Shown here piece by piece: positions 14,883 to 55,893 of a stretch of DNA of 64,000 nt; the first letter of the stretch is position 1, and every line of letters starts with the position of its first letter. A program made the translations under genes and the position numbers. The DNA comes from Nitrospiraceae bacterium (lineage in GTDB: Bacteria; Nitrospirota; Nitrospiria; Nitrospirales; Nitrospiraceae): assembly GCA_019637075.1 (NCBI GenBank), contig JAHBWI010000001.1:186001-250000 (forward strand), given 5' to 3'. Below the pieces are notes generated by a model. The model was not told where the DNA came from. It searched no databases and saw only the letters and a list, made by a program, of their open reading frames with translations.

Positions 14883-16819
14883 CGGTATCGAAGCCTCGAA
14901 TGGATCGCGACTCACTCCCGCCCGATGTGACAAATCTCTCTTGTTGGCCGACTGTCGATCTCGATCTTTTAGATGAGAAAAATGCGGCTCGAGTCAAGAA
15001 GCGGATTCAAGCAGTGAGTGACTATATCGAGGGACAACCCGTTGGGATCATCTCGAAACAAGCGGCCATCCCACGCCAAGAGGTGTATCGGCTCGTCACA
15101 CGTTGCATACAGCCTCACGCTGACGGACGAATCTGGGGATTCCGAGCGTTGCTGACAGCATGTCGTATCAGCTCCTACATTCGAACGGCCACCATAGACG
15201 GAGCCAGACATTCTCAGCAGGGAGGGGCCGCGGGAGCGCTCACGATGCTGTTCGAGCGATTCCCGGCGATCCAACAAGCTGTTGACGCCTTGTTCCTGAA
15301 GAAAGTGAAAGATGACCTTGTGCAGGAATCTCGCATGCCAGTCAAGGCGATTCACAAGTACTTCATTGACAAATGTAAGGAAGCTGGCCTGACCGCGAGA
15401 CACTATCCATTCAACATGAACCATCGGGGACGCCGTGCGCTGTCGAGCTATCTGAAGCGGGTCTTTAAATCGAACCTTAAACAAGCAGTAAAGGCGCGTC
15501 ATGGGACTGATGCCGCGCGAGCGCTCGCCTCGAAAGAAGCAGGTCCCGACAGTATCGTGACCAGACCCTTCGAACGGGTAGAGTTTGATGGCCATCGGAT
15601 CGATGTGATGTGTACGATTGATCTGCCGAATCCTTATGGAGGCACGCAACGGCTTGTGCTTGAGCGACTATGGCTGCTCGTCATCGTCGATGTGAAGACT
15701 CGCGCAATTCTGGGGTATTCCTTGGTGCTGAATTCCGAATACAACGCAGGAGATGTCCTCCGCTGCATCAAGCATGCCTTAACCCCATGGACGCCGATGA
15801 CCTTAACCATCCCCGGGTTGAAGTATACGAACGGCAGTGGGCTTCCTTCTGGAGTCCATGCCGAATGTGCAGGGGCGTTGTGGGACGAATTATGGTTCGA
15901 CAATGCCAAAGCTAATCTGGCAGAGGCGGTTAAATCGAATCTCAGTCGAGTAGTCGGATGTGCGATTAATGCGGGCCCTGTGAAAACCCCTACACGTCGG
16001 CCCTTCATTGAACGATTCTTTCAAACATTGGAAGAAAACGGATTTCATCGGCTGCCATCTACGACGGGCAATGGTCCCAAGGATCCCCGCCGTAAAAATC
16101 CAGAAGATGCGGCGCTACGTTGGAATATCTCCTACCAACACCTTGTTGAACTGATCGACGTATTGATTGCGCGTTACAATGCCGAGCCGCATTCGGGGTT
16201 GGGGTATCGATCACCGCTCGAGATGCTTGAGTACTTTATAGTGAATGAGGGATGCGAGTTCCGTTCGATTCCTGAACAGAGGAGACGAGATCTGGCGCTG
16301 CTCCACATCCGCGTCTGGCGCTGTATTCGTGGAGATGTGACGCAGGGAAAGTGCCCCTACATTGAATTTGAAGGGGTTCGCTATTACAACGATGTCCTCA
16401 GGCACAGCCCTGATCTTATCGGAACACGCCTTTCGCTCCTCGTTGATCCGGACGATCTCCGTTGTATTACCGCATATCTCGAGAATGGAAGCGAGTTTGG
16501 CGTACTCACCGCGCATGGCCTGTGGGGCCGGACGCCACATACGCTCACCGTTCGAAAGGCCATTAACAATCTCCGGGCTCGAAAGTTGATCTTCTATACG
16601 GATACTCAAGACCCCATCCGTGTCTATATGGATTACCTCAATAAGGAAGCCGCGACGAGTAAGTCTGCGAGAGCAGAGGCCACAAAACTCAAAGAAAGCC
16701 TTCGGACAATTACCAAGACCGAATCCACGTCGTCAGTCGCCAGTGCCACAGAGTCGACTTCCTCAGCGTCATCTCGCACGATCCATACCCCTGCCATGAG
16801 GAAAACCCGCCTCGATTAA
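14879..16819 (+). CDS. tnsB: TnsB-like DDE transposase
   Basis: 646 aa from the ATG overlapping the tnsA stop; the open frame extends 51 codons further upstream, but within tnsA. The catalytic triad is visible as Asp237 (RVEFDGHRID), Asp341 (LWFDNAKAN) and Glu378 (FIERFFQTLEE), the DD-35-E spacing of rve-type transposases. An N-terminal part (about 30-200) carries helix-turn-helix segments for end binding, and a C-terminal beta-barrel plus Ser/Thr-rich tail (after about 600) would bind TnsC. It joins the 3' ends of the element to target DNA and leaves a 5-bp duplication, as seen here. All catalytic residues are intact. Confidence 0.92.
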   Translation: MTVSKPRMDRDSLPPDVTNLSCWPTVDLDLLDEKNAARVKKRIQAVSDYIEGQPVGIISKQAAIPRQEVYRLVTRCIQPHADGRIWGFRALLTACRISSYIRTATIDGARHSQQGGAAGALTMLFERFPAIQQAVDALFLKKVKDDLVQESRMPVKAIHKYFIDKCKEAGLTARHYPFNMNHRGRRALSSYLKRVFKSNLKQAVKARHGTDAARALASKEAGPDSIVTRPFERVEFDGHRIDVMCTIDLPNPYGGTQRLVLERLWLLVIVDVKTRAILGYSLVLNSEYNAGDVLRCIKHALTPWTPMTLTIPGLKYTNGSGLPSGVHAECAGALWDELWFDNAKANLAEAVKSNLSRVVGCAINAGPVKTPTRRPFIERFFQTLEENGFHRLPSTTGNGPKDPRRKNPEDAALRWNISYQHLVELIDVLIARYNAEPHSGLGYRSPLEMLEYFIVNEGCEFRSIPEQRRRDLALLHIRVWRCIRGDVTQGKCPYIEFEGVRYYNDVLRHSPDLIGTRLSLLVDPDDLRCITAYLENGSEFGVLTAHGLWGRTPHTLTVRKAINNLRARKLIFYTDTQDPIRVYMDYLNKEAATSKSARAEATKLKESLRTITKTESTSSVASATESTSSASSRTIHTPAMRKTRLD

Positions 16820-40836: not shown

Positions 40837-43800
40837 ATTTCAATGGGGCCACAGCAATTGAGCCGTGGAATTGCGATGCCTGAGCCCTCGGCCACATCTC
40901 ATCTGCCCGCTTCAATGGGGCCACGGCAATTGAGCCGTGGAATCAGATTGCCATTTCGACCTCAGCCTCACCGGTTTCTCGGCTTCAATGGGGCCACGGC
41001 AATTGAGCCGTGGAATCTTGGTGTGGTCCTGGCGATCTACGCCTATCGTAAGGTGCTTCAATGGGGCCACGGCAATTGAGCCGTGGAATCGTGTCCGCCG
41101 TCCGTCCTCCGCGCGGACCACGAGCAACTGGCTTCAATGGGGCCACGGCAATTGAGCCGTGGAATCTGCGCAGTTTGCAGAGAAGAATAAGCGCACCTTT
41201 TCGCTTCAATGGGGCCACGGCAATTGAGCCGTGGAATCGACACCCAGGTGCGGAAGGCGTGAGGCCAGGAGACAAAGCTTCAATGGGGCCACGGCAATTG
41301 AGCCGTGGAATCGAAATCCCTCCGCGAGCGGCTCGGCCTCACCCAGGAGGCTTCAATGGGGCCACGGCAATTGAGCCGTGGAATCAGCGCCTTATTCTGC
41401 TGATTCACCCACGCTTCGACGCTTCAATGGGGCCACGGCAATTGAGCCGTGGAATCCGACGGCGTACAGCCCGTCCGCGGCGACATACAAGTAGCTTCAA
41501 TGGGGCCACGGCAATTGAGCCGTGGAATCTTCCAGAGCCGTGATCAAGTGGCGCGTGCTTCTGGCGCTTCAATGGGGCCACGGCAATTGAGCCGTGGAAT
41601 CCTCACGCATACGATCCATGTGAAGGACGGGGAGCTGCTTCAATGGGGCCACGGCAATTGAGCCGTGGAATCGTTGAACGTCTGCATCACCATTGAAGAA
41701 ATCAGGCTCAGGCTTCAATGGGGCCACGGCAATTGAGCCGTGGAATCGAGGGCAGACGATGACTGAACCCTCGGAATTTTCTAGGCTTCAATGGGGCCAC
41801 GGCAATTGAGCCGTGGAATCGCGATGGCCTGCAGCGCGGTCGGCACGATCAGCTGCGGCTTCAATGGGGCCACGGCAATTGAGCCGTGGAATCTCAGTGT
41901 CGCCCGCAAGCCCGTCGCCGATCCCGTAGCTTCAATGGGGCCACGGCAATTGAGCCGTGGAATCCTCGTCGAACGACAAAGCGGTCTAGGTGGTACGCTC
42001 GCTTCAATGGGGCCACGGCAATTGAGCCGTGGAATCACGTCGTCGTGCCGGAACGCTACGTCATTGTGGTTGCTTCAATGGGGCCACGGCAATTGAGCCG
42101 TGGAATCAGCTCGAGCACCTGGCGCGCCCCCGAAGGCGTCACCGCTTCAATGGGGCCACGGCAATTGAGCCGTGGAATCCGTGCCGGTCTTGAAAACCGT
42201 GGACCAGTGATCCTGGCTTCAATGGGGCCACGGCAATTGAGCCGTGGAATCACCGACGTTGGGACTGATGGCGGAAGCCGGATCACCGGCTTCAATGGGG
42301 CCACGGCAATTGAGCCGTGGAATCGTCATCATGGCGTCCGCATCCGTGCGGCACTGCCCGCTTCAATGGGGCCACGGCAATTGAGCCGTGGAATCCAACA
42401 CCCAGGCTATGGATTGATTAGCTTCACTGGGCTTCAATGGGGCCACGGCAATTGAGCCGTGGAATCACCACAACTCGCCCAGAGCATGTTCCAGCAGTAT
42501 GCGGCTTCAATGGGGCCACGGCAATTGAGCCGTGGAATCTCCACCCGCTGAGGCGGACCAATACACATTGAACCCCGCTTCAATGGGGCCACGGCAATTG
42601 AGCCGTGGAATCTACCGTCGTCTTGACGCGATCGCGCGGCACATGGCGGCTTCAATGGGGCCACGGCAATTGAGCCGTGGAATCACCGCCTCTGAACGGG
42701 TCCGGTGTTTCCGACAGGTGGGCTTCAATGGGGCCACGGCAATTGAGCCGTGGAATCGGGAATCTCGTGGGCCAGATCGTCTGCGACAAGACGGCGCTTC
42801 AATGGGGCCACGGCAATTGAGCCGTGGAATCTTACGGGGTGCATGTGTGGGTCGTCGCGCATCCACAGCTTCAATGGGGCCACGGCAATTGAGCCGTGGA
42901 ATCAATTTCAACGGCGAGCTACAGGCGCTCGTCGAGGATGCTTCAATGGGGCCACGGCAATTGAGCCGTGGAATCTTTGACGATGTAGCCAAACGTATTA
43001 ATGATGAGTTTTAGCTTCAATGGGGCCACGGCAATTGAGCCGTGGAATCCGATTAGTGCCTGGGCCGATAGGGTGAAAGTTGCGCGGCTTCAATGGGGCC
43101 ACGGCAATTGAGCCGTGGAATCTTGGATCGCGGCGCGACACTCAAATTGTTTCTTGCCCTGCTTCAATGGGGCCACGGCAATTGAGCCGTGGAATCCGAA
43201 GAGGACGAGTCCTTGAAGACGGCGTTCTTGGCGGCTTCAATGGGGCCACGGCAATTGAGCCGTGGAATCAGTTTGATTTGACAACCTGGTCCGCAACGGG
43301 AGTGACGGCTTCAATGGGGCCACGGCAATTGAGCCGTGGAATCATGCCTCCTCGGTTTATCCGGGGAGGCCTCCATGTCTGCTTCAATGGGGCCACGGCA
43401 ATTGAGCCGTGGAATCCACGCTGTCCACGAATGGCACCGTCTACCCGCTGATGCTTCAATGGGGCCACGGCAATTGAGCCGTGGAATCCGATCAGCATTT
43501 CGTCCGACGCGATCACACCGACGCGGGGCTTCAATGGGGCCACGGCAATTGAGCCGTGGAATCTAAATCCTCGTAATCAATAACCACATCATCATGCTAC
43601 CGCTTCAATGGGGCCACGGCAATTGAGCCGTGGAATCTCGTCACCTATGTGACCGCAGGCTCGGCAGCCGAAGCTTCAATGGGGCCACGGCAATTGAGCC
43701 GTGGAATCCATGGACATACATAGTGCCGGGGATGGAAACCGTTGCGCAGCTTCAATGGGGCCACGGCAATTGAGCCGTGGAATCCACGCGGAGGCCGAGA

Positions 43801-45390
43801 CATGCCCCAAGCGATGACCTTCGGCTTCAATGGGGCCACGGCAATTGAGCCGTGGAATCCGCCTCGATCGGGCTCTTGGATTTGGCGGCCGTCTACGCGC
43901 TTCAATGGGGCCACGGCAATTGAGCCGTGGAATCGCGTGACGGTCGACGGCGTCGTCCGGACCAATCTCACGCTTCAATGGGGCCACGGCAATTGAGCCG
44001 TGGAATCACCCAGGAGCAATTGGCCGAGCGGCTCGGCGTCACCCGGCTTCAATGGGGCCACGGCAATTGAGCCGTGGAATCACCGGCGCGAATTGCTTGC
44101 ACGACATTCGTAGTGCGGCTTCAATGGGGCCACGGCAATTGAGCCGTGGAATCGTGCGGTAAACGGCTGCGCCGTGACGATCGAGCCGCCGCCGCTTCAA
44201 TGGGGCCACGGCAATTGAGCCGTGGAATCAGCCGCGCCACCCTCTACCGCTGGATGGCCGAGTACAGCTTCAATGGGGCCACGGCAATTGAGCCGTGGAA
44301 TCTCTCCGCCAACGTCTACCTCGACGAGTTTGCATTCCATGCTTCAATGGGGCCACGGCAATTGAGCCGTGGAATCCCAGCTCCAGTCCGCAAACGCGAC
44401 CGGGCACGGGTGCTTCAATGGGGCCACGGCAATTGAGCCGTGGAATCATACAGACGGCTACCGGCGCCCAATTCGTTTCGGCGCTTCAATGGGGCCACGG
44501 CAATTGAGCCGTGGAATCCGGGCGGCTATGAGGAAGGGCAAGCCCGGCTTGAGGCGGCTTCAATGGGGCCACGGCAATTGAGCCGTGGAATCTTCGGTAC
44601 TGACACATCAATCGAACCGGTTGCACAGGCTTCAATGGGGCCACGGCAATTGAGCCGTGGAATCGGCAAAGATGGCGAACCAGGCATTCTAGAGTTCAGC
44701 TTGCTTCAATGGGGCCACGGCAATTGAGCCGTGGAATCTGGGAGGCGGGCATCCATCCGATTTCCCGCCAGACGCGCTTCAATGGGGCCACGGCAATTGA
44801 GCCGTGGAATCAACTCGTCACCGGTCACGCAGGAGGCGCTGACTCGCATGCTTCAATGGGGCCACGGCAATTGAGCCGTGGAATCCTCGATACGCCTCTA
44901 TGACTCTCGCGGCATCGTGCGGCTTCAATGGGGCCACGGCAATTGAGCCGTGGAATCCCAATTCCAGGGGGGAAAAGTCCTGCACTTCATCCAGGCTTCA
45001 ATGGGGCCACGGCAATTGAGCCGTGGAATCGGCCGAACGGAGCGCCGAAGACAACGCTTTCCACCGCGCTTCAATGGGGCCACGGCAATTGAGCCGTGGA
45101 ATCCGCGCCGGAACATTGGTACGGCGGCGGCGGCGACGTGCTTCAATGGGGCCACGGCAATTGAGCCGTGGAATCATGGCGGAAATCTAACACTCTCCTC
45201 TTTTTGCCCCGCTTCAATGGGGCCACGGCAATTGAGCCGTGGAATCGTCGGTAACGGCACGTTGACGCGTGGCGTGTGGCAGCTTCAATGGGGCCACGGC
45301 AATTGAGCCGTGGAATCGAATTGAGGGACATTCTTTGCCGACACGGTGGCGATGGCTTCAATGGGGCCACGGCAATTGAGCCGTGGAATC
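40837..45390 (-). CRISPR. Type I-G CRISPR array, 63 repeats and 62 spacers
   Basis: 36-nt repeats start about every 71-76 bp. On the plus strand they begin GCTTCAATGGGG and end GAGCCGTGGAATC, with an internal palindrome CCACGGC/GCCGTGG. By my reading 62 copies are identical. Only the leftmost (40837-40872) is degenerate: it starts AT instead of GC, has ACAGC in place of ACGGC, and ends in T. Degeneracy marks the leader-distal end, so the array is transcribed leftward from a leader at 45391-45599. In that direction the repeat ends ATTGAAGC, the usual 3' handle for this class. Spacers are about 34-40 nt. Individual spacers translate to phage-like motifs (see findings). Open frames across the array are repeat artefacts. 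Confidence 0.97.
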
Positions 45391-45599
45391 AGCTCTTGGC
45401 GAACAGCTTATCAATACAGCGATTCAAGAGCATTCTGCGAGCACCTTTGTTCGACGAAACATTACATTGCGACACGTGCAGATTCCACCTCCTCTCATAT
45501 TGAGTTGTTTTCCGCTCTCTCTCGTTTGTAGTCGTTGTGAACCGCGAGCGCTCCGCGGCCTTGCATCATTATAAGAGCGCTCGCGCAGTGCCCGGCAGC
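45391..45599 (-). promoter_or_regulatory. CRISPR leader region
   Basis: 209 bp between the leader-proximal repeat and the cas2 stop. It contains a perfect TATAAT on the minus strand (45568-45573) lying inside an inverted repeat: GCGAGCGCTC at 45544-45553 and its complement at 45575-45584. The hairpin could terminate the cas transcript, mark the array promoter, or serve in spacer integration. The 35 box is not clear. Confidence 0.6.
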
Positions 45600-45890
45600 C
45601 TACACGACACGAGCACGCCGTTCCTCCCATTCAGCCTTGATCCCCATCGACTCAATGCGCTTGATGGGATTACTTTCTGTCGTGCCCAAATCGATGATGA
45701 GGACTTGATCTTCCCGTTGATCGATAATCTCAGTCAAGGCTGCCTTCATCCGCACGAGATCAATGTCCGGCAGATCGCACTGGAACACGGAAAACTGCAG
45801 ATGAGCTCCGAAACCTTTCATGGTCTTAAAGACACGGCGCAAGCGTTTCGCATCGGCAATGTCATAGGTGACGAGGTAGTGGCGCCGCAT
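45600..45890 (-). CDS. cas2: CRISPR adaptation protein Cas2
   Basis: 96 aa, normal for Cas2. The N-terminal beta strand MRRHYLVTYDIAD carries the conserved aspartate, followed by the ferredoxin-like fold and QFSVFQCDL. It forms the Cas1-Cas2 integrase that inserts new spacers at the leader. It begins 4 bases after the cas4-cas1 gene and is the last gene before the leader. Confidence 0.95.
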   Translation of the reverse strand: MRRHYLVTYDIADAKRLRRVFKTMKGFGAHLQFSVFQCDLPDIDLVRMKAALTEIIDQREDQVLIIDLGTTESNPIKRIESMGIKAEWEERRARVV

Positions 45891-45893
45891 GGG

Positions 45894-47594
45894 TTACCTT
45901 GTGGTGAACGGCGGCAAATCCGGAATCTCGCCGAGCAGATACCGGCCCAGCAGACGTGCTTGCACTTCGAGCACCCGTCTGTAGCTGATCTGATAGCCGA
46001 ACACCGGATGAGTGATCTCCTGGCTCATTCGTCGCTCATAAGTCTCAATGAGCCGGCGGCGTCCTTCGGGCGTCAATGTGACCGACCCCATACGTTCGAT
46101 CCAGTCACTGACCCGGATTTCGCCGTTATTGATGGCGGTCAAAACGGCGGAATCTGCAATGAGCGGCCGAAACTCCTCCATCATGTCCAACGCGAGCGCC
46201 GGGCGTCCGTATCGAGGCTGATGATAGAACCCCAGGTAAGGATCGAGCCCCACGCTCTGCAATACGACCGTCCACTCGCGCGCGAGCATCGAATAGAGCA
46301 GCGAGAGCATGGCATTGACCGGATCGCGCGGAGGACGGCGATTCCGGCCGTCGAAATCGAATCGTGCGCCCGGTTCGGCCTCCTTCAGCATCCCGGAAAA
46401 TTCCGAGAAATAGCGGCGCGCGGCCGTGCCCTCGATGCCGAGCAGGGATTCCAACGACTCTGCCGTGCCGGCTTGCACTTGGTCCCGCTTCAAATCCTGG
46501 ATCACGGTGTCCGGAGCGGCCCGATGGTTCCGCCGCAGCAAGGTTCTGGAATTAGCGATCTTCGCCTGCACGAAGCGTCGCGCCAGCGTCAGACAGCGCA
46601 CCGGATCGGCCGCCACGGCGTATTGCCGTCGGCGCAGATCGACGTGCTTGTGCAGGAGACCGGAAGTCATCCCATAGAACCACCCCCCGCTGGAACAGTA
46701 GACGAGCGGAATGCCTCGTTTGCAGAGTTCCTGCACGACCTGCGTACTGACCTGCACGGCTCCATAGAGCACCACCTGCGAGGTCTCCACCAGGCGCGCT
46801 TCGCCGATGACTTCATCATGGTCCTTGATCTTCAGGCATTCGCCGTCCTTCGCCAGCTTTGCCCCCGGCGTCTGCACATGCAGCGGTAGCGCGTCGTCAT
46901 TGGTGGGAACCAGTTTCCGAAGAGCCGGGCCCTCCCCTTCATGCGGAGTCCGGAGCCACCCCACCTCATCCGGCAGACAGAGCCCCACGAGCGAGCAGCG
47001 AGGACACTTCGGACTGTCGACCAGCGGCGGCGGAGCAATGGGGGCGGCCGTCGTCGCCTTCATCCCCTCCACCAATTCACGCGTACGGGCGACCAGTTCC
47101 TCGTCGAACAGCACCTCCACGCGTTCGCGAGATCCCACGAAATACAGCACCCCATGATCGCACGTAAACCCTTGTTCTCTGAGCAAGAGGCCTTGCAGAC
47201 AGAGCTGGACCCGTTCCGGTTCCCACGCTCCCTGTGCCGTGTGCGGACGCTTGCCGCGCTTGTAGTCCACCGGCACGACCGTCGTGCCTTCGCCCTCCAC
47301 CAGATCGATTTTCGCCGTCACCCCCAGATGTTCCGACGAGAGCCACACCGATCGCTGGTGGATGGTGGTGTCATTCGACTCGCCCTCCTCGGTCTGCCGG
47401 GTTTTCCTCGCCGGTGCTTGGTCCACCCGTCGATGGTGGAACCGCCCCTCGGCGGTCTCCGCATTGTCGGTGAACACCCCGTCGACCCATTCGAAGTAGG
47501 CCAGACGCGGGCAATAGGCAAACTCATTGACCATCCTGGCGGGGAGCAACGGGAGGTCGCTCCCCGTGGACGGGCCTAGGTATTTGTTCTCCAT
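45894..47594 (-). CDS. cas4-cas1: Cas4-Cas1 fusion
   Basis: 566 aa. Residues about 1-215 are Cas4, a RecB-type nuclease with a 4Fe-4S cluster: Cys28 in FAYCPRLAYFEW, the DYK motif in VPVDYKRGK, and CPRCSLVGLC. Residues about 225-566 are Cas1: the catalytic Glu in GIEGTAARRYF, His in LGFYHQPRYG, and the acidic LDMMEEFRP. This fusion is characteristic of type I-G. Cas4 trims prespacers and selects the PAM; Cas1 integrates. Start chosen at the first ATG, 129 nt after csb2. Confidence 0.95.
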   Translation of the reverse strand: MENKYLGPSTGSDLPLLPARMVNEFAYCPRLAYFEWVDGVFTDNAETAEGRFHHRRVDQAPARKTRQTEEGESNDTTIHQRSVWLSSEHLGVTAKIDLVEGEGTTVVPVDYKRGKRPHTAQGAWEPERVQLCLQGLLLREQGFTCDHGVLYFVGSRERVEVLFDEELVARTRELVEGMKATTAAPIAPPPLVDSPKCPRCSLVGLCLPDEVGWLRTPHEGEGPALRKLVPTNDDALPLHVQTPGAKLAKDGECLKIKDHDEVIGEARLVETSQVVLYGAVQVSTQVVQELCKRGIPLVYCSSGGWFYGMTSGLLHKHVDLRRRQYAVAADPVRCLTLARRFVQAKIANSRTLLRRNHRAAPDTVIQDLKRDQVQAGTAESLESLLGIEGTAARRYFSEFSGMLKEAEPGARFDFDGRNRRPPRDPVNAMLSLLYSMLAREWTVVLQSVGLDPYLGFYHQPRYGRPALALDMMEEFRPLIADSAVLTAINNGEIRVSDWIERMGSVTLTPEGRRRLIETYERRMSQEITHPVFGYQISYRRVLEVQARLLGRYLLGEIPDLPPFTTR

Positions 47595-47722: not shown

Positions 47723-49279
47723 TCATGGTGGTGGAGGATCCTCCACCACCGGCACGAACTGGCCGAGGCCGAAGTGGGAAGAATGGCCGAGCGCGAGAGG
47801 GCCAGGAACAGGGTTGGGGAAGATCAGTCGAAATGCCCCGGCTAGGCGTCGGCCTCCGTCGTCACCAGCCTTGCGTCGGAAGCGCTTGAACTGAATCGGC
47901 CGCCAGCGACTAGCAATCGTGAAAACATGATGGTTATCCCAAAGTGGTTCGATAGTCACCATCGTCCGATCCACGCCAGCCAACTCAGGCCGCACATCGG
48001 CCAATTGCTTCCGAAGGTCTTCCTGAAGAAACGTGGCGCGAGCCTCTGGCGATCGCAAGTCGATTTGATGCTGACCTTTAGTTTTGGCGTAGCGCGTGGC
48101 AACGTATGGAGTTGAGGACTCCCATATCTTAGACGCACGCAATGGGCCGGGGGTATACTCGTCCGCTGCGCCCATACCCAACAGAAGCAGGAGAAGCGGA
48201 TGGCGTTCCTCATCGTCCCAGCCCATCTTGAGTTCCCTTAGGCGGTCGAGTGCGCCCCGCTCATCTGGATCAAAACCTCCCGCCGCATATACCGTCAGGT
48301 GGTCCAGACGGCCGTCTCCATCCTCGTCAGTCGGCAGATAATACGCGTGCCGGTGGTTGATCAGCCGTTTCCCCTGGTGATCCTTGCCCGACAGCACGTC
48401 GGACCGTCCTCGAATGCCACCCTGCGCAGTCAACCTTCCGTGAATGCCCATCAGATTACGCCTCGCCGCTTCTGCTACAGGCAGAGTGTCAGTAACTAAG
48501 GGAAGAACGACTGAGTCGAGGGCATAACGGACGACTTGAATCAGGGAAGCACCTGATCGCTCGCGTGAGACCGTCGTACCCTTTGAACACCGCGGAAATA
48601 CGGCGTGATACCACACTGTTCCCGCTGGGATTCGAGATCTAGAAAGTCGCTTGTCGTCTGTGTTTGCAAGTAAGATATCAACATCGAGAACTTGATCCCT
48701 CTTGTGCGCAAGAACAGGAACCGACCCAGAAATTATGCTCGTCCGCAGTTCGCAATTGATAGTGATATCCCTGCTGTTCTCAATCAGTTGCATTATTGTC
48801 CACGTCTCAGCACGTCCGAAGTAGTGGATGCGTCTCAGAAGCTGACGTAATAGATGGACTGCTTCTTCTGAAAGCCTACAAGAGGACCAGATCCAGTAAA
48901 CGGGCTCAGCAGCAGGTACAGCACGATACTTGTCGAGAGCAAGTGTTGGTAGAGGAACTTTGACTTCCGGGACGTCCTTTGTCTTAGTGAACTTGACCTG
49001 AGTGGGATGGTACTGACGCAAGTCCTGTCCTTGCCAGGTTTGTGCGGGAAGATGGAACGATGGCAACTCACCGGCCAAAGCTTGAAGCAATTCATCGCGA
49101 AGATGCGTATTGTCAGTGCCCGTCTCACGTTGATACTGGAACCACCGTGCAGCCAGGGTGCGAATGAACCGCCATGGTGACGGCGGCCATTCACCCACTC
49201 GGTCTTCAAATGGATTCTGGTTCCAACGTGTGGCATGGAACCGTCCAAGCGGAAAGGTCTGTTCAATTACCACGGGCAT
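47723..49279 (-). CDS. csb2: Type I-G Csb2 (Cas5-Cas6 fusion)
   Basis: 518 aa, GSU0054-like Csb2. The N-terminus MPVVIEQTFPLGRFHATRWN and WPPSPWRFIRTLAARW matches the Cas5-like part. The C-terminal half contains RPIQFKRFRRKAGDDGGRR and GPLALGHSSHFGLGQF, the Cas6-like part with a glycine-rich loop. It processes the crRNA and caps its 5' end in the effector complex. It starts 3 nt after csb1, and DNA in this part of the operon looks less GC-rich than cas4-cas1. Confidence 0.92.
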   Translation of the reverse strand: MPVVIEQTFPLGRFHATRWNQNPFEDRVGEWPPSPWRFIRTLAARWFQYQRETGTDNTHLRDELLQALAGELPSFHLPAQTWQGQDLRQYHPTQVKFTKTKDVPEVKVPLPTLALDKYRAVPAAEPVYWIWSSCRLSEEAVHLLRQLLRRIHYFGRAETWTIMQLIENSRDITINCELRTSIISGSVPVLAHKRDQVLDVDILLANTDDKRLSRSRIPAGTVWYHAVFPRCSKGTTVSRERSGASLIQVVRYALDSVVLPLVTDTLPVAEAARRNLMGIHGRLTAQGGIRGRSDVLSGKDHQGKRLINHRHAYYLPTDEDGDGRLDHLTVYAAGGFDPDERGALDRLRELKMGWDDEERHPLLLLLLGMGAADEYTPGPLRASKIWESSTPYVATRYAKTKGQHQIDLRSPEARATFLQEDLRKQLADVRPELAGVDRTMVTIEPLWDNHHVFTIASRWRPIQFKRFRRKAGDDGGRRLAGAFRLIFPNPVPGPLALGHSSHFGLGQFVPVVEDPPPP

Positions 49280-49282
49280 AAA

Positions 49283-50530
49283 TCAATCCTCTTCGTCATC
49301 GCTGTCTTCAGGCTCCGGCAAATCTTGGACTTGTGACGCAGCGGGCTCACTGTCTTCTACAGTCTTAAACAATTCGCTGGATGGGTAATACACCTTGACT
49401 ACATTGTTACCGAATTCACAGTTGGAGATCGAATCCTTTATGCTCACGGACAGTTCGTCAGGTTTGTGGGAATGATCGTCTGGAACGTTTGGACCATCCA
49501 TTTCATCCCACCATGCAATCCCACTGCAGAGCAATTGGCAACCTGTGCGGAAGCGGAACGGTGATTGGAGTAAGCGTTTAATTTTCCAAATGGCGAGGTC
49601 AAGAAGCAGGCGCTTCTGCTTTTCGTTCAATCCTGTATTGTTGCGCCCGTATGACCGGAGTAACGCCAGGTCTATAATAAAAGTCGCAACGATAGTATGG
49701 GACGTCTCCTCATCGACGGCGAATATAGGCTGACCGGAAGTGGTCTTGCCTAGACGGTCGAACTTAACGCCGGAACTTCCCACACGGGCAGCCCCAAAAG
49801 CCTCTAGATGTGCTGTGAGAATCCGGCTGAGCTTGATCTGCTCCTTGGCAAACATGACACCGTGGATGAGAGAGTTAGGGTCGTACGTGAACAGTGTACG
49901 GTAAATAGTCCACCACGTATCCGGCCATATAAAGTATGTTTTATCCTTCTTGACCTCCTTAATGCCGAACTCTTGACGCAGTTGGGCCCGGAACTTGACA
50001 CCTACCCACTCTGCCGGAGCTGTCTTTTGCTGAGTTTCCTTCTTTCGAGACCCAGTTCCAATCTTTGTTTGCTTCTGAGTTTCAGTCTCCTGACTTTTCT
50101 GACGCCATGTGGGATTTATAAAGGCGTCAAGAAAATAGTCCGAGGCAAGGCGATGCCCTTCACTCAATGTTGTGCAGACTATAGTGTTGAGAGGATCATC
50201 CTGGGATGGAGCATCACCTTTATCCGTAACGCACTTGACATATGGGAGGCCTAAGAGATCCTCATGAAGGTCAGTCGGTCCGTCCATGCAAACGGACTCC
50301 AAGTGATTAGCCATGCTCGCAGGGCTGTCAACAATGCAGATCTTTTCTGAGCGTGAGTCTTCGCGAGGTGCATCATAAATAACATGGCCAATTTCAGGGA
50401 ACCCGGCCGGTTGGAAACGTGCCATTCCTGCAACTGGTTCTAAGCACGCACGGATGGCGAGGCAAGCCGGGCCATCTGCCCTGAGAGCTTCCGCCTGCCA
50501 GTTGTTTTCATTGAGGTTCAGCTTGGGCAT
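49283..50530 (-). CDS. csb1: Type I-G Csb1 (Cas7)
   Basis: 415 aa, GSU0053-like Csb1, the Cas7 backbone subunit that polymerises along the crRNA. Typical segments are ADGPACLAIRACLEPVAG, GHVIYDAPREDSRSEKICIV and ESVCMDGP. It has a charged C-terminal tail rich in Glu/Asp. Its start overlaps csx17 by 13 nt. Confidence 0.92.
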   Translation of the reverse strand: MPKLNLNENNWQAEALRADGPACLAIRACLEPVAGMARFQPAGFPEIGHVIYDAPREDSRSEKICIVDSPASMANHLESVCMDGPTDLHEDLLGLPYVKCVTDKGDAPSQDDPLNTIVCTTLSEGHRLASDYFLDAFINPTWRQKSQETETQKQTKIGTGSRKKETQQKTAPAEWVGVKFRAQLRQEFGIKEVKKDKTYFIWPDTWWTIYRTLFTYDPNSLIHGVMFAKEQIKLSRILTAHLEAFGAARVGSSGVKFDRLGKTTSGQPIFAVDEETSHTIVATFIIDLALLRSYGRNNTGLNEKQKRLLLDLAIWKIKRLLQSPFRFRTGCQLLCSGIAWWDEMDGPNVPDDHSHKPDELSVSIKDSISNCEFGNNVVKVYYPSSELFKTVEDSEPAASQVQDLPEPEDSDDEED

Positions 50531-52857
50531 GCAATTCTCCTTTCATTCTTACTCGGGGATGGCAGCAACCAATCTTTTTTTAGCTGGGCAGCTACCTCGA
50601 CAGGATCAACTGGAATCAGTAACGCCGCTGCAAATCGTTCTACATCAAGCGACATCTCATTGTCCGGCGGATCGAAGGTCCGCCAACCGGCGCTAAGATA
50701 GCGACGGCGCGCATGAGCGATTGCCTCCTGAACCTGATTTTGAAGAATCAGGTTCAGGAGGCATCGAATTGCAGCAGCATGAGGTTTTCGAGAGTCGTTC
50801 TGAGTAACTGGAAAGAGCAATTTTCCGTTCACTCTTATGTCCTGAGGCTCAACTATCGGTCGGAAGAGCGAGTATAGAGGATGGATTCTCTCAGAGGGCT
50901 CAATGGGCTTATCCTGCCAGTTACGAATCCCTTTGCTCCAATCAATGAGGGTCAATGCTGGGAGCCATCGTACCAGCAGTTCATCGTCGAATACGGATCC
51001 CCCTGTGAGATAGAGCGCAACCTTGGTGATACTGCACGGTCGCGACGCATGAAGTGGTGATAAATCAAGCTCTGTTGCGTCGAGGAGTCGACGGTGCAGT
51101 ACATCGATTAGGCGTCTGGTCGGATTGCCCTCATGCCAAATGGCTCTATTGGGACGAGCCTTCGGAAACAAAGGGATGCCGCTCTCAGCTATCTCGACCC
51201 CAAAAATATTCACAAGCAAAGGATCTGCAGGTTTCGTTAAACCATCGATTAACGATGGTTCTCCCCGAATAGAGGCAATTCCGCGTGCCACACACAGTTC
51301 CGGAGGTGGTTCAGGCCACGCCCGATCGAACCAACTTACATCCAGTCTGGGCACCGGGACGCACCGCTCGCGCAAGTTTCTGTTTTGGTCGATACGCCGC
51401 TGCGTTTGCGCAATCAACAATAGCAATCTCTGCCATCTCTCGGAGTCCTCTGGCTCCTCGGATAGATGAATAATGGCGACCTCCACGGGACCGCGCAGTC
51501 CAACGAATTTTCCACGTTGCTTTGAATCTCTGGGTTCAAACGGAAGCCGGTCGATCCAACGCTTGGTGATGAGGGGTAGGAGAAGTCGTGAGTAGCGCAG
51601 ACCTGCTTGGCGATGCACCTGAATCCGCTCCCGTGGCAATGCTTCGAAAACCTTTGCGCTCGTTGTCTGCCGGAACTCGAAACGTACAAATGCAGATATG
51701 CCCGCATCGACCCCTGCGTGAAGCGCGGCAGTCGCAAACTCGTGCGGAGCAGTGGCGGAACGCCCGTCCACCTCTGCCAGCCCTCCCTGTAACAATGCCG
51801 CGATCTCCGCCATTGCGGCAGGCTTATTCCATAGCGGAGCCCAGAACTCGCATCGTCCGTGAGCAACCTGCCCGTCAGTCGGTGGTTCCGTCGGGCGACA
51901 CATAAAAGGGAAGACAGCTCTGCCTTTCGTTTGCGTTCCAATTCGTCTGTGAATCGCCCCACGAATGAGAAGAGCACCTTCTATAGCGAGCAAAAAAGAC
52001 CAAGGAGAAAGCCGACCTTCCCGGTACCATTCCTGGCCACTGTTGAAGGTTTTATTGGAGTATACGAACCATGTACCAGCACTTTTAAGCTCAGGAAGCG
52101 GTTTATCCTCAACACCAAAAAGTGTGTGCTCAAGCCATGACCCGGCATCAGGCTTATTCGTCAACTCAAGACATCGCTTCCACACAGCTGCCAAGTCGCG
52201 TTTGCCTATATTTCCACCCGTCCCGAACAAGTCGTTGAAGATGCGCCGATTTGCTTGGACCATTACCGCGTCGAGACGATCTATGCGATCATCAGACTCG
52301 CATGCCCGCGCTTTGGGTATTGCATCACTATCATTCTTACTCGCAGTTTGGACAGGACCCCACCATCGCTCGAATGGAGCCGGCTTCCACTTTTTGAGCA
52401 AGTATGTGCACAAAGCTTCACGGTTAAGGACTGCGGTAGGGCCACATACAAGAAACCTTTCGTCTTTCCAGCAACCGCGAATGGCAATGTCCCCATTCAT
52501 TTGAGTTGCGGCATGAAGCACCCCTAGAGCAGCAAGATAGTGGCCCAGACTTCCTGTATGAAGACCGCCTAGCATCAGCGGCTCAGGTGTGCAGCCAGAC
52601 AATTCAAGGTCATATTGTGTATTGCCATTTTCATATTGAACCGACTGCTCGCTTACACTCGCGCCTCGCACAGACTCTCCCTGCTCATAGACCGGCGCTG
52701 TGCCCAACTGTTGAGCGATGTCCTGCATTTCCTCGATGGCAAGCAGAATATCTTCCAATGGCAATTGCGCCCAGCGCCGTAGTTGTTCTCGACGCGACCC
52801 CTCGAAGCTGGTCAAACGCCAGTCGAATTCTGAAATGTGTGGCCTATTTTCCGGCAT
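50518..52857 (-). CDS. csx17: Type I-G Csx17 (large subunit, Cas8-like)
   Basis: 779 aa. The segment LMLGGLHTGSLGHYLAALGVL, RGCWKDERFLV, and a conserved R-E-G-RLSPWSFLLAIEGALL block match Csx17, the Cas8-type subunit of type I-G. It would recognise the PAM and contact Cas3. It overlaps both csb1 and the nucleotidyltransferase gene, so it is translationally coupled on both sides. Confidence 0.9.
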   Translation of the reverse strand: MPENRPHISEFDWRLTSFEGSRREQLRRWAQLPLEDILLAIEEMQDIAQQLGTAPVYEQGESVRGASVSEQSVQYENGNTQYDLELSGCTPEPLMLGGLHTGSLGHYLAALGVLHAATQMNGDIAIRGCWKDERFLVCGPTAVLNREALCTYLLKKWKPAPFERWWGPVQTASKNDSDAIPKARACESDDRIDRLDAVMVQANRRIFNDLFGTGGNIGKRDLAAVWKRCLELTNKPDAGSWLEHTLFGVEDKPLPELKSAGTWFVYSNKTFNSGQEWYREGRLSPWSFLLAIEGALLIRGAIHRRIGTQTKGRAVFPFMCRPTEPPTDGQVAHGRCEFWAPLWNKPAAMAEIAALLQGGLAEVDGRSATAPHEFATAALHAGVDAGISAFVRFEFRQTTSAKVFEALPRERIQVHRQAGLRYSRLLLPLITKRWIDRLPFEPRDSKQRGKFVGLRGPVEVAIIHLSEEPEDSERWQRLLLLIAQTQRRIDQNRNLRERCVPVPRLDVSWFDRAWPEPPPELCVARGIASIRGEPSLIDGLTKPADPLLVNIFGVEIAESGIPLFPKARPNRAIWHEGNPTRRLIDVLHRRLLDATELDLSPLHASRPCSITKVALYLTGGSVFDDELLVRWLPALTLIDWSKGIRNWQDKPIEPSERIHPLYSLFRPIVEPQDIRVNGKLLFPVTQNDSRKPHAAAIRCLLNLILQNQVQEAIAHARRRYLSAGWRTFDPPDNEMSLDVERFAAALLIPVDPVEVAAQLKKDWLLPSPSKNERRIACPS

Positions 52858-53370: not shown

Positions 53371-55893
53371 CTAGGGAGATATGTGTCCCGGCTGTTGTGT
53401 CATTGCTCTCTGCTCCGCGTCCCGACTAGCCCGCATATCCGCTGCCCGAAGGATGGCCTCAAGATAGGCCAGCCGGAACGGACCGAGTGTATGGCGAAGA
53501 CCTAGCATGCGCTCAGCCCATGAAGGCAATCCACGAAACGGCACCTGTTCGCACAACCCCAATTCCATCGGTTCCAGCGAGAGTTGGACGGCTGGCGCAA
53601 TCACATCGTCACCCAAATCAGTTGTCGGAAGCCTGTCGCTGTCCCATATTCCCCTGGCAAAACGGCGATCACCATCTGGACGCCTTTCACCAGGCAGCGA
53701 ACGGATCGAGAGACGCACCTTCCCGTGGTGGGAAGCAACGAGATAAGCCACAAGGTTTCTTAGGTCGTCAGGAATCTTGTCGTTTTGTGGATCAAGGACT
53801 GATAAAGCGGAAGCAAGTTCATGACGGAAGTGCCGACGGCTATACTTCTTCCATCGCCCCGGCGCCTTGGCCCAAACTTCTCCAGGTTTTGGCGAACCAT
53901 CAGGCAATGCTCCCCGAAAGACTTCGTGCGCTTTTCCTCGATCATGCCAGCGGGCGGCATGGCGAATTGCCTGCCCTTCGTCTTGGTTAACAGACAACGC
54001 ATCGAGTATTTGATTCACTTCCTGGCAGAGATCCTCCGTATGTTCGGCAATGGTCTGCCAGCGCTTGATATGAGAGAGAGGGTCATCATCCGTAGCGTCT
54101 TCAACATCTCCATTTGTTCCTGTCGGCGGAGGAATCGGAACAACAGTATCTCTACTCTCCGGATTCCAGCCCATTTTCGTCGAATATCCTCCGGCTTTGA
54201 CATGAATGAGAAACACTTGCCCTGGCGCGACCTTCCCTGCATCGGCCTTCTCCCACTTCCTATCAAGGAAATTCCACCGCCAGACTTTTCCGCTGTGTTG
54301 TTTAGCGAATTGTCGGAAGCCGGGTTTTTTTTCACTCCCGACCGGAGCAGAGCAAAGTTCATCGAGACGAGGGGCGGATTCCTCCTCCGACGGAGACTCA
54401 TATCCTTTGAGCTGCTCCCAATCACGCCAAAACACCCGCACATCACTCTCTTCGATATCGCGAATAAAATGATCAATGTCAATGTCGTTACCGGCCAAGT
54501 CCGGCGTAGTGTCAAACAGATCAATCAGATCTTTTCGGCGTATCACATGCGTATGTTCAAAACGTAAGGGCAGTGAACTTTCGCAAAGGCTTTTTAACCC
54601 CACATCGGACAGTTTCTCCAACTGCTCTTCTCCGGCCTTGAAATCCTTCAGATCATAAGGGGCAACCAGATTTTCCGTAGCCGAACTCTTCGTTGGCATG
54701 ACAATTCGATAAACTGCGGCATCAGCGTTTGCCTCCCCTCTGCGATTGCATCTGCCAAATCGTTGAACCAAAGACGCCCATGGGGCCGGCTCTGTGAACA
54801 ATGTCGTCGCACTGAGGTCCACGCCCGCCTCGATGACCTGCGTACTGACAACGATGATGCCTGGCTGATCCGGTTCAATTGCAGCAAGCGCTCGCTCCAC
54901 CTGTCTCTTTCGGTCCTCAGGCCTAAACCGCGAGTGCAGCAAGACGATAGCGGGTTCAGTGGCGTGGGGTTTACTCTTGGCATCAGCGTCTAGCACCTTG
55001 CACAGTTCACATGCCCGTTTGACTGTGTTGAGGATGACAATAGTGCGCTTACCCGGTTTATGGGCTTTGCGGACCTCTTTGGCCAGCACAGAGATGTCGC
55101 CCATTACTGCCTCGGTTTTCTTCAACGGCTTCTTCGCTGTCCAGCGCTTCTTGACCTCACCAGTGCGGTGGTCATCCTGATTTAGCGCGAGTTGCGAGAG
55201 GCTGTCTGCATGTTCTTTAAAATCTACAGTATTCAGCCAATCGCGATGCAACGTCGCGGACATCCATACACTGCGACAACCATGGCCGTTCTTAGCGTTA
55301 TCCGAATCCTTGGCGGGAAGTACCCGCCGGAACGCATCAAGTTGTGTAGTCGTCGACAGTCCCGCCCCCATCAACTGAATCTCATCGAACACCCATAGGC
55401 AGTCCGTGTTAAGCAATCCAAATTTTACCGGCCAGCGAGATCGAGTGGCGGCATAACCACGATTGAGCGCACGCGAGAGCAACATATCCTGAGTCCCAAT
55501 AATAATCTGATCGCATTCGGGATAGATGTCCCAATCTTCTTCATCCTCGCCACCCATGAGAACGTGCACCTTGAGAGGTTGAACCATTTCTGTGGGATAG
55601 CGTTTCTGAATTTCGGCAATCCACTTGCTGGTCTCACCTTTGGTCTGCTCCACTAGCACTCGCATCGGCAGGCAATACACCAATCGCCTTGGAGTGGCCT
55701 TCCTGACTGTCTCTTCAGCAAAGCGGCGCCGCCACAGCCACCCCAATACCGCCATGGCCGTTTTTCCCAACCCAGTCGGCACATCCACAAGCTCGGGTAG
55801 TTCCGGCTCACAGGCAAAGCGAATTTGAAATGGGTAAGGCTCATTGCCGGTCGCTTGCCGAAACCACCGTGCGAATTCGTCGTGATTGCTCAT
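53371..55893 (-). CDS. cas3: Type I-G Cas3 helicase-nuclease (C-terminal HD)
   Basis: 840 aa. SF2 helicase first: Walker A PTGLGKT at residues 39-45 and Walker B DEIQ at 170-173. The HD nuclease comes last: HD at 650-651 (ARWHDRGKAHEVF), His691 and the SHHG pair near 722-723. Helicase followed by HD is the type I-G order, opposite to most Cas3 proteins. It is recruited by Cascade to unwind and degrade target DNA. Confidence 0.95.
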   Translation of the reverse strand: MSNHDEFARWFRQATGNEPYPFQIRFACEPELPELVDVPTGLGKTAMAVLGWLWRRRFAEETVRKATPRRLVYCLPMRVLVEQTKGETSKWIAEIQKRYPTEMVQPLKVHVLMGGEDEEDWDIYPECDQIIIGTQDMLLSRALNRGYAATRSRWPVKFGLLNTDCLWVFDEIQLMGAGLSTTTQLDAFRRVLPAKDSDNAKNGHGCRSVWMSATLHRDWLNTVDFKEHADSLSQLALNQDDHRTGEVKKRWTAKKPLKKTEAVMGDISVLAKEVRKAHKPGKRTIVILNTVKRACELCKVLDADAKSKPHATEPAIVLLHSRFRPEDRKRQVERALAAIEPDQPGIIVVSTQVIEAGVDLSATTLFTEPAPWASLVQRFGRCNRRGEANADAAVYRIVMPTKSSATENLVAPYDLKDFKAGEEQLEKLSDVGLKSLCESSLPLRFEHTHVIRRKDLIDLFDTTPDLAGNDIDIDHFIRDIEESDVRVFWRDWEQLKGYESPSEEESAPRLDELCSAPVGSEKKPGFRQFAKQHSGKVWRWNFLDRKWEKADAGKVAPGQVFLIHVKAGGYSTKMGWNPESRDTVVPIPPPTGTNGDVEDATDDDPLSHIKRWQTIAEHTEDLCQEVNQILDALSVNQDEGQAIRHAARWHDRGKAHEVFRGALPDGSPKPGEVWAKAPGRWKKYSRRHFRHELASALSVLDPQNDKIPDDLRNLVAYLVASHHGKVRLSIRSLPGERRPDGDRRFARGIWDSDRLPTTDLGDDVIAPAVQLSLEPMELGLCEQVPFRGLPSWAERMLGLRHTLGPFRLAYLEAILRAADMRASRDAEQRAMTQQPGHISP

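What the first reader, a model, noticed from the sequence alone, without database searches (positions are those of the whole stretch)
44303..44340. Spacer translating to a phage terminase motif
One frame reads SANVYLDEFAFH, close to the Walker-B region (YLDEFAFH) of Mu-like terminase large subunits. This points to targeting of a packaging gene.
Basis: partly seen in the sequence, partly recalled or inferred. Interest (0 to 1): 0.5.

Follow-up and report, generated by a model that had tools for sequence, protein, structure and literature searches.

The report
CRISPR spacer against phage packaging motor
One of 62 memory entries in a bacterial immune array copies the ATP-using core of the DNA-packaging motor of Mu-like phages; it is a clear but ordinary case of a bacterium remembering a virus.

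Summary
The finding holds. Window 44303-44340 is spacer 48 of 62 in a type I-G CRISPR array (40837-45390), in a genome of the same family as a Nitrospira MAG. Its third + frame reads SANVYLDEFAFH. A degenerate pattern for ANVYLDEFAFH hit 11 viral and 4 bacterial stretches; exact 20- and 18-base pieces of the spacer hit 3 and 3 more. All 21 ORFs (four pairs identical or nearly so) match Terminase_6N; the reversed peptide hit none. T4 gp17 aligns there at its Walker B strand.

The best sites have 5 mismatches. One group lies in viral contigs related to a Mu-like prophage of the Nitrospira MAG (MuA, MuB, Gam, gp27 homologues). Spacers 59 (1 mismatch, portal), 14 (5, head protease) and 42 (5, unknown ORF) match the same phage group; reversed spacers reach 10 at best. 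TTN PAMs flank the spacer 59 and 42 sites and 5 of 15 spacer 48 sites.

Weak points: no perfect protospacer; the nearest spacer 48 sites have TGT or GGC, spacer 14 has GGC. Exact YLDEFAFH occurs in 0 of 8 isolate phages checked. The biology is standard anti-phage memory.

The parts
44303..44340 (-). Spacer 48 of 62 (15th from the presumed leader); crRNA is antisense to the terminase gene. Third + frame reads SANVYLDEFAFH.
40837..45390 (-). CRISPR array, 63 repeats of 36 nt (62 perfect, the one at 40837-40872 with 4 changes), 62 spacers of 35-40 nt
   Evidence: the only array with this repeat in the genome at up to 3 mismatches
45391..45599 (-). Presumed leader, between the array and cas2
   Evidence: position beside cas2 and opposite the degenerate terminal repeat; inferred, no promoter test made
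45600..45890 (-). cas2
   Evidence: TIGR01573 2.9e-10, PF09827 1.1e-18
45894..47594 (-). cas4-cas1 fusion of type I-G
   Evidence: NF049935 5.4e-245
47723..49279 (-). csb2 (cas5-cas6 fusion)
   Evidence: TIGR02165 7.1e-39
49283..50530 (-). csb1 (cas7)
   Evidence: TIGR02570 1.4e-14, PF09617 2.1e-27
50518..52857 (-). csx17 (cas8g)
   Evidence: TIGR04113 1.1e-106
53371..55893 (-). cas3 of type I-G
   Evidence: TIGR02621 1.1e-235
45104..45139 (-). Spacer 59: portal gene of the same Mu-like phage group, 1 mismatch, TTC PAM
41821..41857 (-). Spacer 14: head protease / major head ORF of the same phage group, 5-6 mismatches, flank GGC (not TTN)
43860..43898 (-). Spacer 42: 229-aa ORF of unknown function beside the head genes of the Nitrospira prophage, 5 mismatches, TTG PAM

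Best explanation
Spacer 48 is an immune memory taken from the terminase large-subunit gene of a Mu-like transposable phage that infected this Nitrospira-like bacterium or an ancestor. The Cas4-Cas1/Cas2 adaptation complex would have cut it beside a TTN PAM and inserted it at the leader. Transcribed from the minus strand and cut by Csb2, it gives a crRNA with the 8-nt handle AUUGAAGC, antisense to the terminase gene, that guides the Csb1/Csb2/Csx17 complex and Cas3 to phage DNA. The peptide reading is a by-product: the spacer lies on the codons of the Walker B strand, which phages cannot change freely, so only third-position drift separates it from its nearest Nitrospira-phage relatives. Shown here: array, cas genes, terminase identity, phage kinship, other spacers against the same phage group. 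Inferred: acquisition, transcription, interference.
For: 21 of 21 ORFs found are Terminase_6N; reversed-peptide control 0; six of six hits of exact spacer pieces are in frame in terminase. Mismatches to the Nitrospira prophage (8) and to L018 (5) are all at third codon positions (partly forced by the search pattern). At 17 sites not recruited by the peptide pattern, mismatches fall 41/46/93 on codon positions 1/2/3 (the B3 row did not fall on the motif). Three further spacers (59, 14, 42) match the same phage group at 1, 5 and 5 mismatches against at best 10 for reversed spacers. TTN PAM at the spacer 59 and 42 sites, as published for type I-G (PMC9638904, passages seen). Repeat folds with a 7-bp stem followed by 12 nt, which fits the published cut 4 nt past the hairpin leaving an 8-nt handle.
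Against: No protospacer with 3 or fewer mismatches in 395 genomes of the phylum, and none with the spacer's own last codons in IMG/VR. Nearest sites lack a TTN PAM (TGT in L003/L005/L017/L018, GGC in L023). Spacer 14 sites have GGC. Of 175 family genomes only one holds this terminase and the window genome has none. Expression of the array was not testable.
Confidence: 0.95

Rival explanations
1. Chance: one of about 370 short reading frames in 62 spacers happens to resemble a terminase motif, and the spacer comes from something else.
For: Spacers are short and a reader may pick the best frame; blastn to isolate phages gives only weak, mixed matches.
Against: 11-residue identity at 15 loci, reversed peptide none in IMG/VR; exact pieces 6 of 6 in terminase; sister spacers hit the same phages.
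Confidence: 0.02
2. The spacer comes from a terminase gene, but of a different, perhaps non-Mu-like phage or a prophage remnant or gene-transfer agent with the same Walker B motif, not the Nitrospira Mu-like group.
For: 5 to 7 mismatches occur in several phage groups alike (L003, L023, L020, L006, L007, L026); the motif is shared widely.
Against: Spacers 59, 14 and 42 point at the Nitrospira Mu-like group.
Confidence: 0.2
3. The spacer does something other than antiviral defence, for example regulation of a resident prophage gene.
For: The crRNA is antisense to the gene.
Against: The window genome has no such terminase and no second match with up to 3 mismatches; spacer 14 is in the sense direction, so there is no uniform antisense pattern.
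Confidence: 0.02

Closest known systems
Type I-G (formerly I-U) CRISPR-Cas, as in Geobacter sulfurreducens, Methanosarcina barkeri and the system of PMC9638904
   Same: Cas4-Cas1 fusion, Csb2, Csb1, Csx17, Cas3g; 36-nt repeat whose hairpin is followed by 4 nt and an 8-nt handle; TTN beside several protospacers.
   Different: Nothing that sets it apart was found; a different host lineage and spacer set.
Mu-like transposable phages with B23/B3-type terminases (Alteromonadaceae phage B23, Rhodovulum phage vB_RhkS_P1, Pseudomonas phage B3, Escherichia phage Mu)
   Same: Terminase of the Nitrospira prophage aligns to theirs (39.3% identity to B23, 29.8% to B3, 27.8% to Mu); gp27-like small terminase, MuA, MuB, Gam.
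   Different: Exact YLDEFAFH is absent from the 8 isolates checked; it is in the uncultured and Nitrospira-linked group.

Membership tests
Type I-G CRISPR-Cas | Signature genes csx17, csb2, csb1 and cas3g | tested here: met
   scores above NCBIfam cut-offs
Type I-G CRISPR-Cas | Cas4-Cas1 fusion with Cas2 | tested here: met
   (NF049935, 814 bits against a cut-off of 560; cas2 40.3 against 24.5)
Type I-G CRISPR-Cas | TTN PAM on the crRNA-like strand | tested here: inconclusive
   TTC for spacer 59, TTG/TTC for 42, TTN at 5 of 15 pattern-recruited spacer 48 sites, GGC for 14
Type I-G CRISPR-Cas | Transcription, processing and interference | not testable with these tools
   no expression or assay data
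Target: phage terminase large subunit | Terminase_6N ATPase and Terminase_6C nuclease domains in the ORF that holds the protospacer | tested here: met
   21 of 21 ORFs hit both at E <= 0.001; 20 of 21 pass the Pfam cut-off for both (L024 Terminase_6C 22.2 against 22.6)
Target: phage terminase large subunit | Motif lies at the Walker B strand | tested here: met
   alignment to T4 gp17 chains 3ezk, 2o0h, 3cpe, E 8.8e-08 to 8.6e-07; the residue label Walker B is recalled
Target phage is Mu-like | MuA transposase, MuB, Gam and gp27 homologues on the same contig as the terminase | tested here: met
   Nitrospira contig L029/L030; tested in this contig only
Authentic protospacer of this spacer | Near-perfect match with PAM | tested here: not met
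   best site 5 mismatches with TGT or GGC

The most novel reading that the evidence does not exclude
The array could be biased to the head and packaging genes of Mu-like phages: all four recognised spacers fall within about 7.9 kb of the Nitrospira prophage contig (terminase, portal, head protease, next ORF). If acquisition or retention favours such conserved sites, the memory would cross phage lineages and be hard to escape by amino-acid change. Conserved genes are also the easiest to recognise in diverged relatives, so the clustering may be a detection effect.
Probability: 0.07. Interest if true: 0.5.

Novelty: new member of a known kind. Interest (0 to 1): 0.2.

Why it matters
It ties a large type I-G array in a Nitrospira-like bacterium to a Mu-like transposable phage group, by four separate spacers and a prophage in a relative. 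Nitrospira are nitrite oxidisers (recalled), so a virus-host link is of use to ecologists. The mechanism itself is textbook.

Tried and rejected
Searched and empty: own genome for a second copy up to 3 mismatches; 395 genomes of the phylum; IMG/VR for the spacer's own last codons and for the motif followed by a TTN-type PAM and Asn-Ser/Thr (a narrow pattern). Blastn to isolate phages gave only weak matches. The L016 terminase protein was found in 1 of 175 family genomes, that one being the Nitrospira MAG itself. A closer phage through the spacer 59 site gave only the two viral contigs already held.

Rejected: chance reading of a short frame; uniform antisense targeting (spacer 14 is sense). 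The match of spacer 44 (9 mismatches, L030) is too close to the control level (10) to use. The conservation rank of the site (2 of 496 windows of the 18-sequence alignment, 23 of 496 with the eight isolates alone) is biased in the first figure because most rows were recruited by the motif. In one search the frame chosen for spacer 42 in L018 was the longest ORF and not the right one, so that row was dropped. In one search the best site in phage B3 was not at the motif; it was left in the 41/46/93 total.

Literature: two searches on Nitrospira phages and CRISPR (12 of 34 and 4 of 4 listings seen) showed no title on this array or phage group; this is not proof of absence in print. PMC9638904 and PMC10504553 were seen as passages only.

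Full report
What is there. The window holds a CRISPR array at 40837-45390: 63 repeats of 36 nt and 62 spacers of 35-40 nt. 62 repeats are identical; the one at 40837-40872 has 4 changes, which marks it as the distal end. The repeat occurs nowhere else in the genome at up to 3 mismatches (62 places, all in this array). Beside it, all on the minus strand, lie cas2, cas4-cas1, csb2, csb1, csx17 and cas3, a complete type I-G set.

Orientation. On the minus strand the repeat ends in ATTGAAGC. It folds with a 7-bp stem followed by 12 nt. A published type I-G study reports a cut 4 nt past the hairpin base and an 8-nt 5' handle (PMC9638904, passages); here 4 + 8 gives the handle AUUGAAGC. A search string for the M. 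barkeri type I-G repeat end also ends in ATTGAAGC (PMC10504553, passage). The crRNA is therefore read from the minus strand and the leader is presumably at 45391-45599. The spacer in question, 44303-44340, is number 48, the 15th from that end.

The motif. The third + frame reads SANVYLDEFAFH. A degenerate pattern for ANVYLDEFAFH gave 11 stretches in IMG/VR and 4 in bacterial genomes; the reversed peptide gave 0 in IMG/VR. All 15 also have Ser in front, which was not asked for, in both codon families. To avoid forcing the peptide, exact pieces of the spacer were used: a 20-mer gave 3 stretches and an 18-mer 3. All six are in the same frame. All 21 ORFs match Pfam Terminase_6N and Terminase_6C (the weakest Terminase_6N E-value is 1.8e-06, L024, whose Terminase_6C score of 22.2 is just under the cut-off of 22.6). 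The 21 are not independent: L003/L005 and L002/L014 carry identical ORFs, L006/L011 and L013/L015 nearly identical ones. T4 gp17 aligns there as AMIYIDECAF or AMIYIEDCAF, its Walker B strand (label recalled).

The phage. The Nitrospira MAG contig JACOEL010000016.1 (L016) equals G123 contig 12, a genome of the same family as the window's (100% identity over 507 residues; contig length 108551). Around the terminase lie homologues of Mu gp27, a portal protein, a head protease/major head protein, Gam, MuB and MuA. Among isolates the terminase is nearest to Alteromonadaceae phage B23 (39.3%) and also aligns to B3 and Mu. In eight isolates checked the motif reads LDEFAFH in five, LDEFALH in two and IDEAAFH in Mu; none has the exact YLDEFAFH.

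Other spacers. The 62 spacers were compared with 45 held loci (585,264 bases, with overlaps). Five reach 9 mismatches or fewer: 59 (1), 14, 42 and 48 (5 each), 44 (9); the best reversed spacer has 10. Spacers 59, 14 and 42 hit the same Mu-like group as 48: portal, head protease and a 229-aa ORF without a PHROG match. The loci had been fetched because of spacer 48, so the three others are separate support. The crRNAs of 48, 59 and 42 are antisense to the genes, that of 14 is sense.

Mismatches and PAM. Mismatches to the prophage (8) and to L018 (5) are all at third codon positions; this is partly forced by the pattern that found the group. The equally close L023 has only 2 of 5 at third positions. 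At 17 sites not found with the peptide pattern the counts are 41/46/93 for positions 1/2/3 (one of these, in B3, is not at the motif). On the crRNA-like strand the flank is TTC for the 1-mismatch sites of spacer 59, TTG or TTC for 42, and TTN at 5 of 15 pattern sites of 48 (L001, L008, L013, L015, L016). It is TGT or GGC at the nearest sites of 48 and GGC for 14. The type I-G PAM is reported as TTN. The known relatives may thus be escaped or merely diverged; the true donor phage was not found.

Verdict. The observation and the interpretation both hold. It is an ordinary, well-supported example of CRISPR memory against a phage packaging gene, in a host lineage where the phage group itself is little known. 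Interest is low to moderate.

Noticed in passing
45104-45139: Spacer 59 matches the portal gene of the Nitrospira-linked Mu-like phage group with one mismatch and a TTC PAM; the best target link of the array seen here.
   Followed up: yes
41821-41857 and 43860-43898: Spacers 14 and 42 match the same phage group at 5 mismatches.
   Followed up: partly
41313-41349 and 44008-44045: Spacers 7 and 44 read like helix-turn-helix regulators (recalled motif); spacer 44 has a weak 9-mismatch match in L030 at 15252-15289.
   Followed up: no
L029 1-20000 and L030 1-20000: A Mu-like prophage in the Nitrospira sp. S2bin.17 MAG contig, with an ORF similar to phage pectate-lyase-like proteins at L029 9424-11004.
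   Followed up: partly
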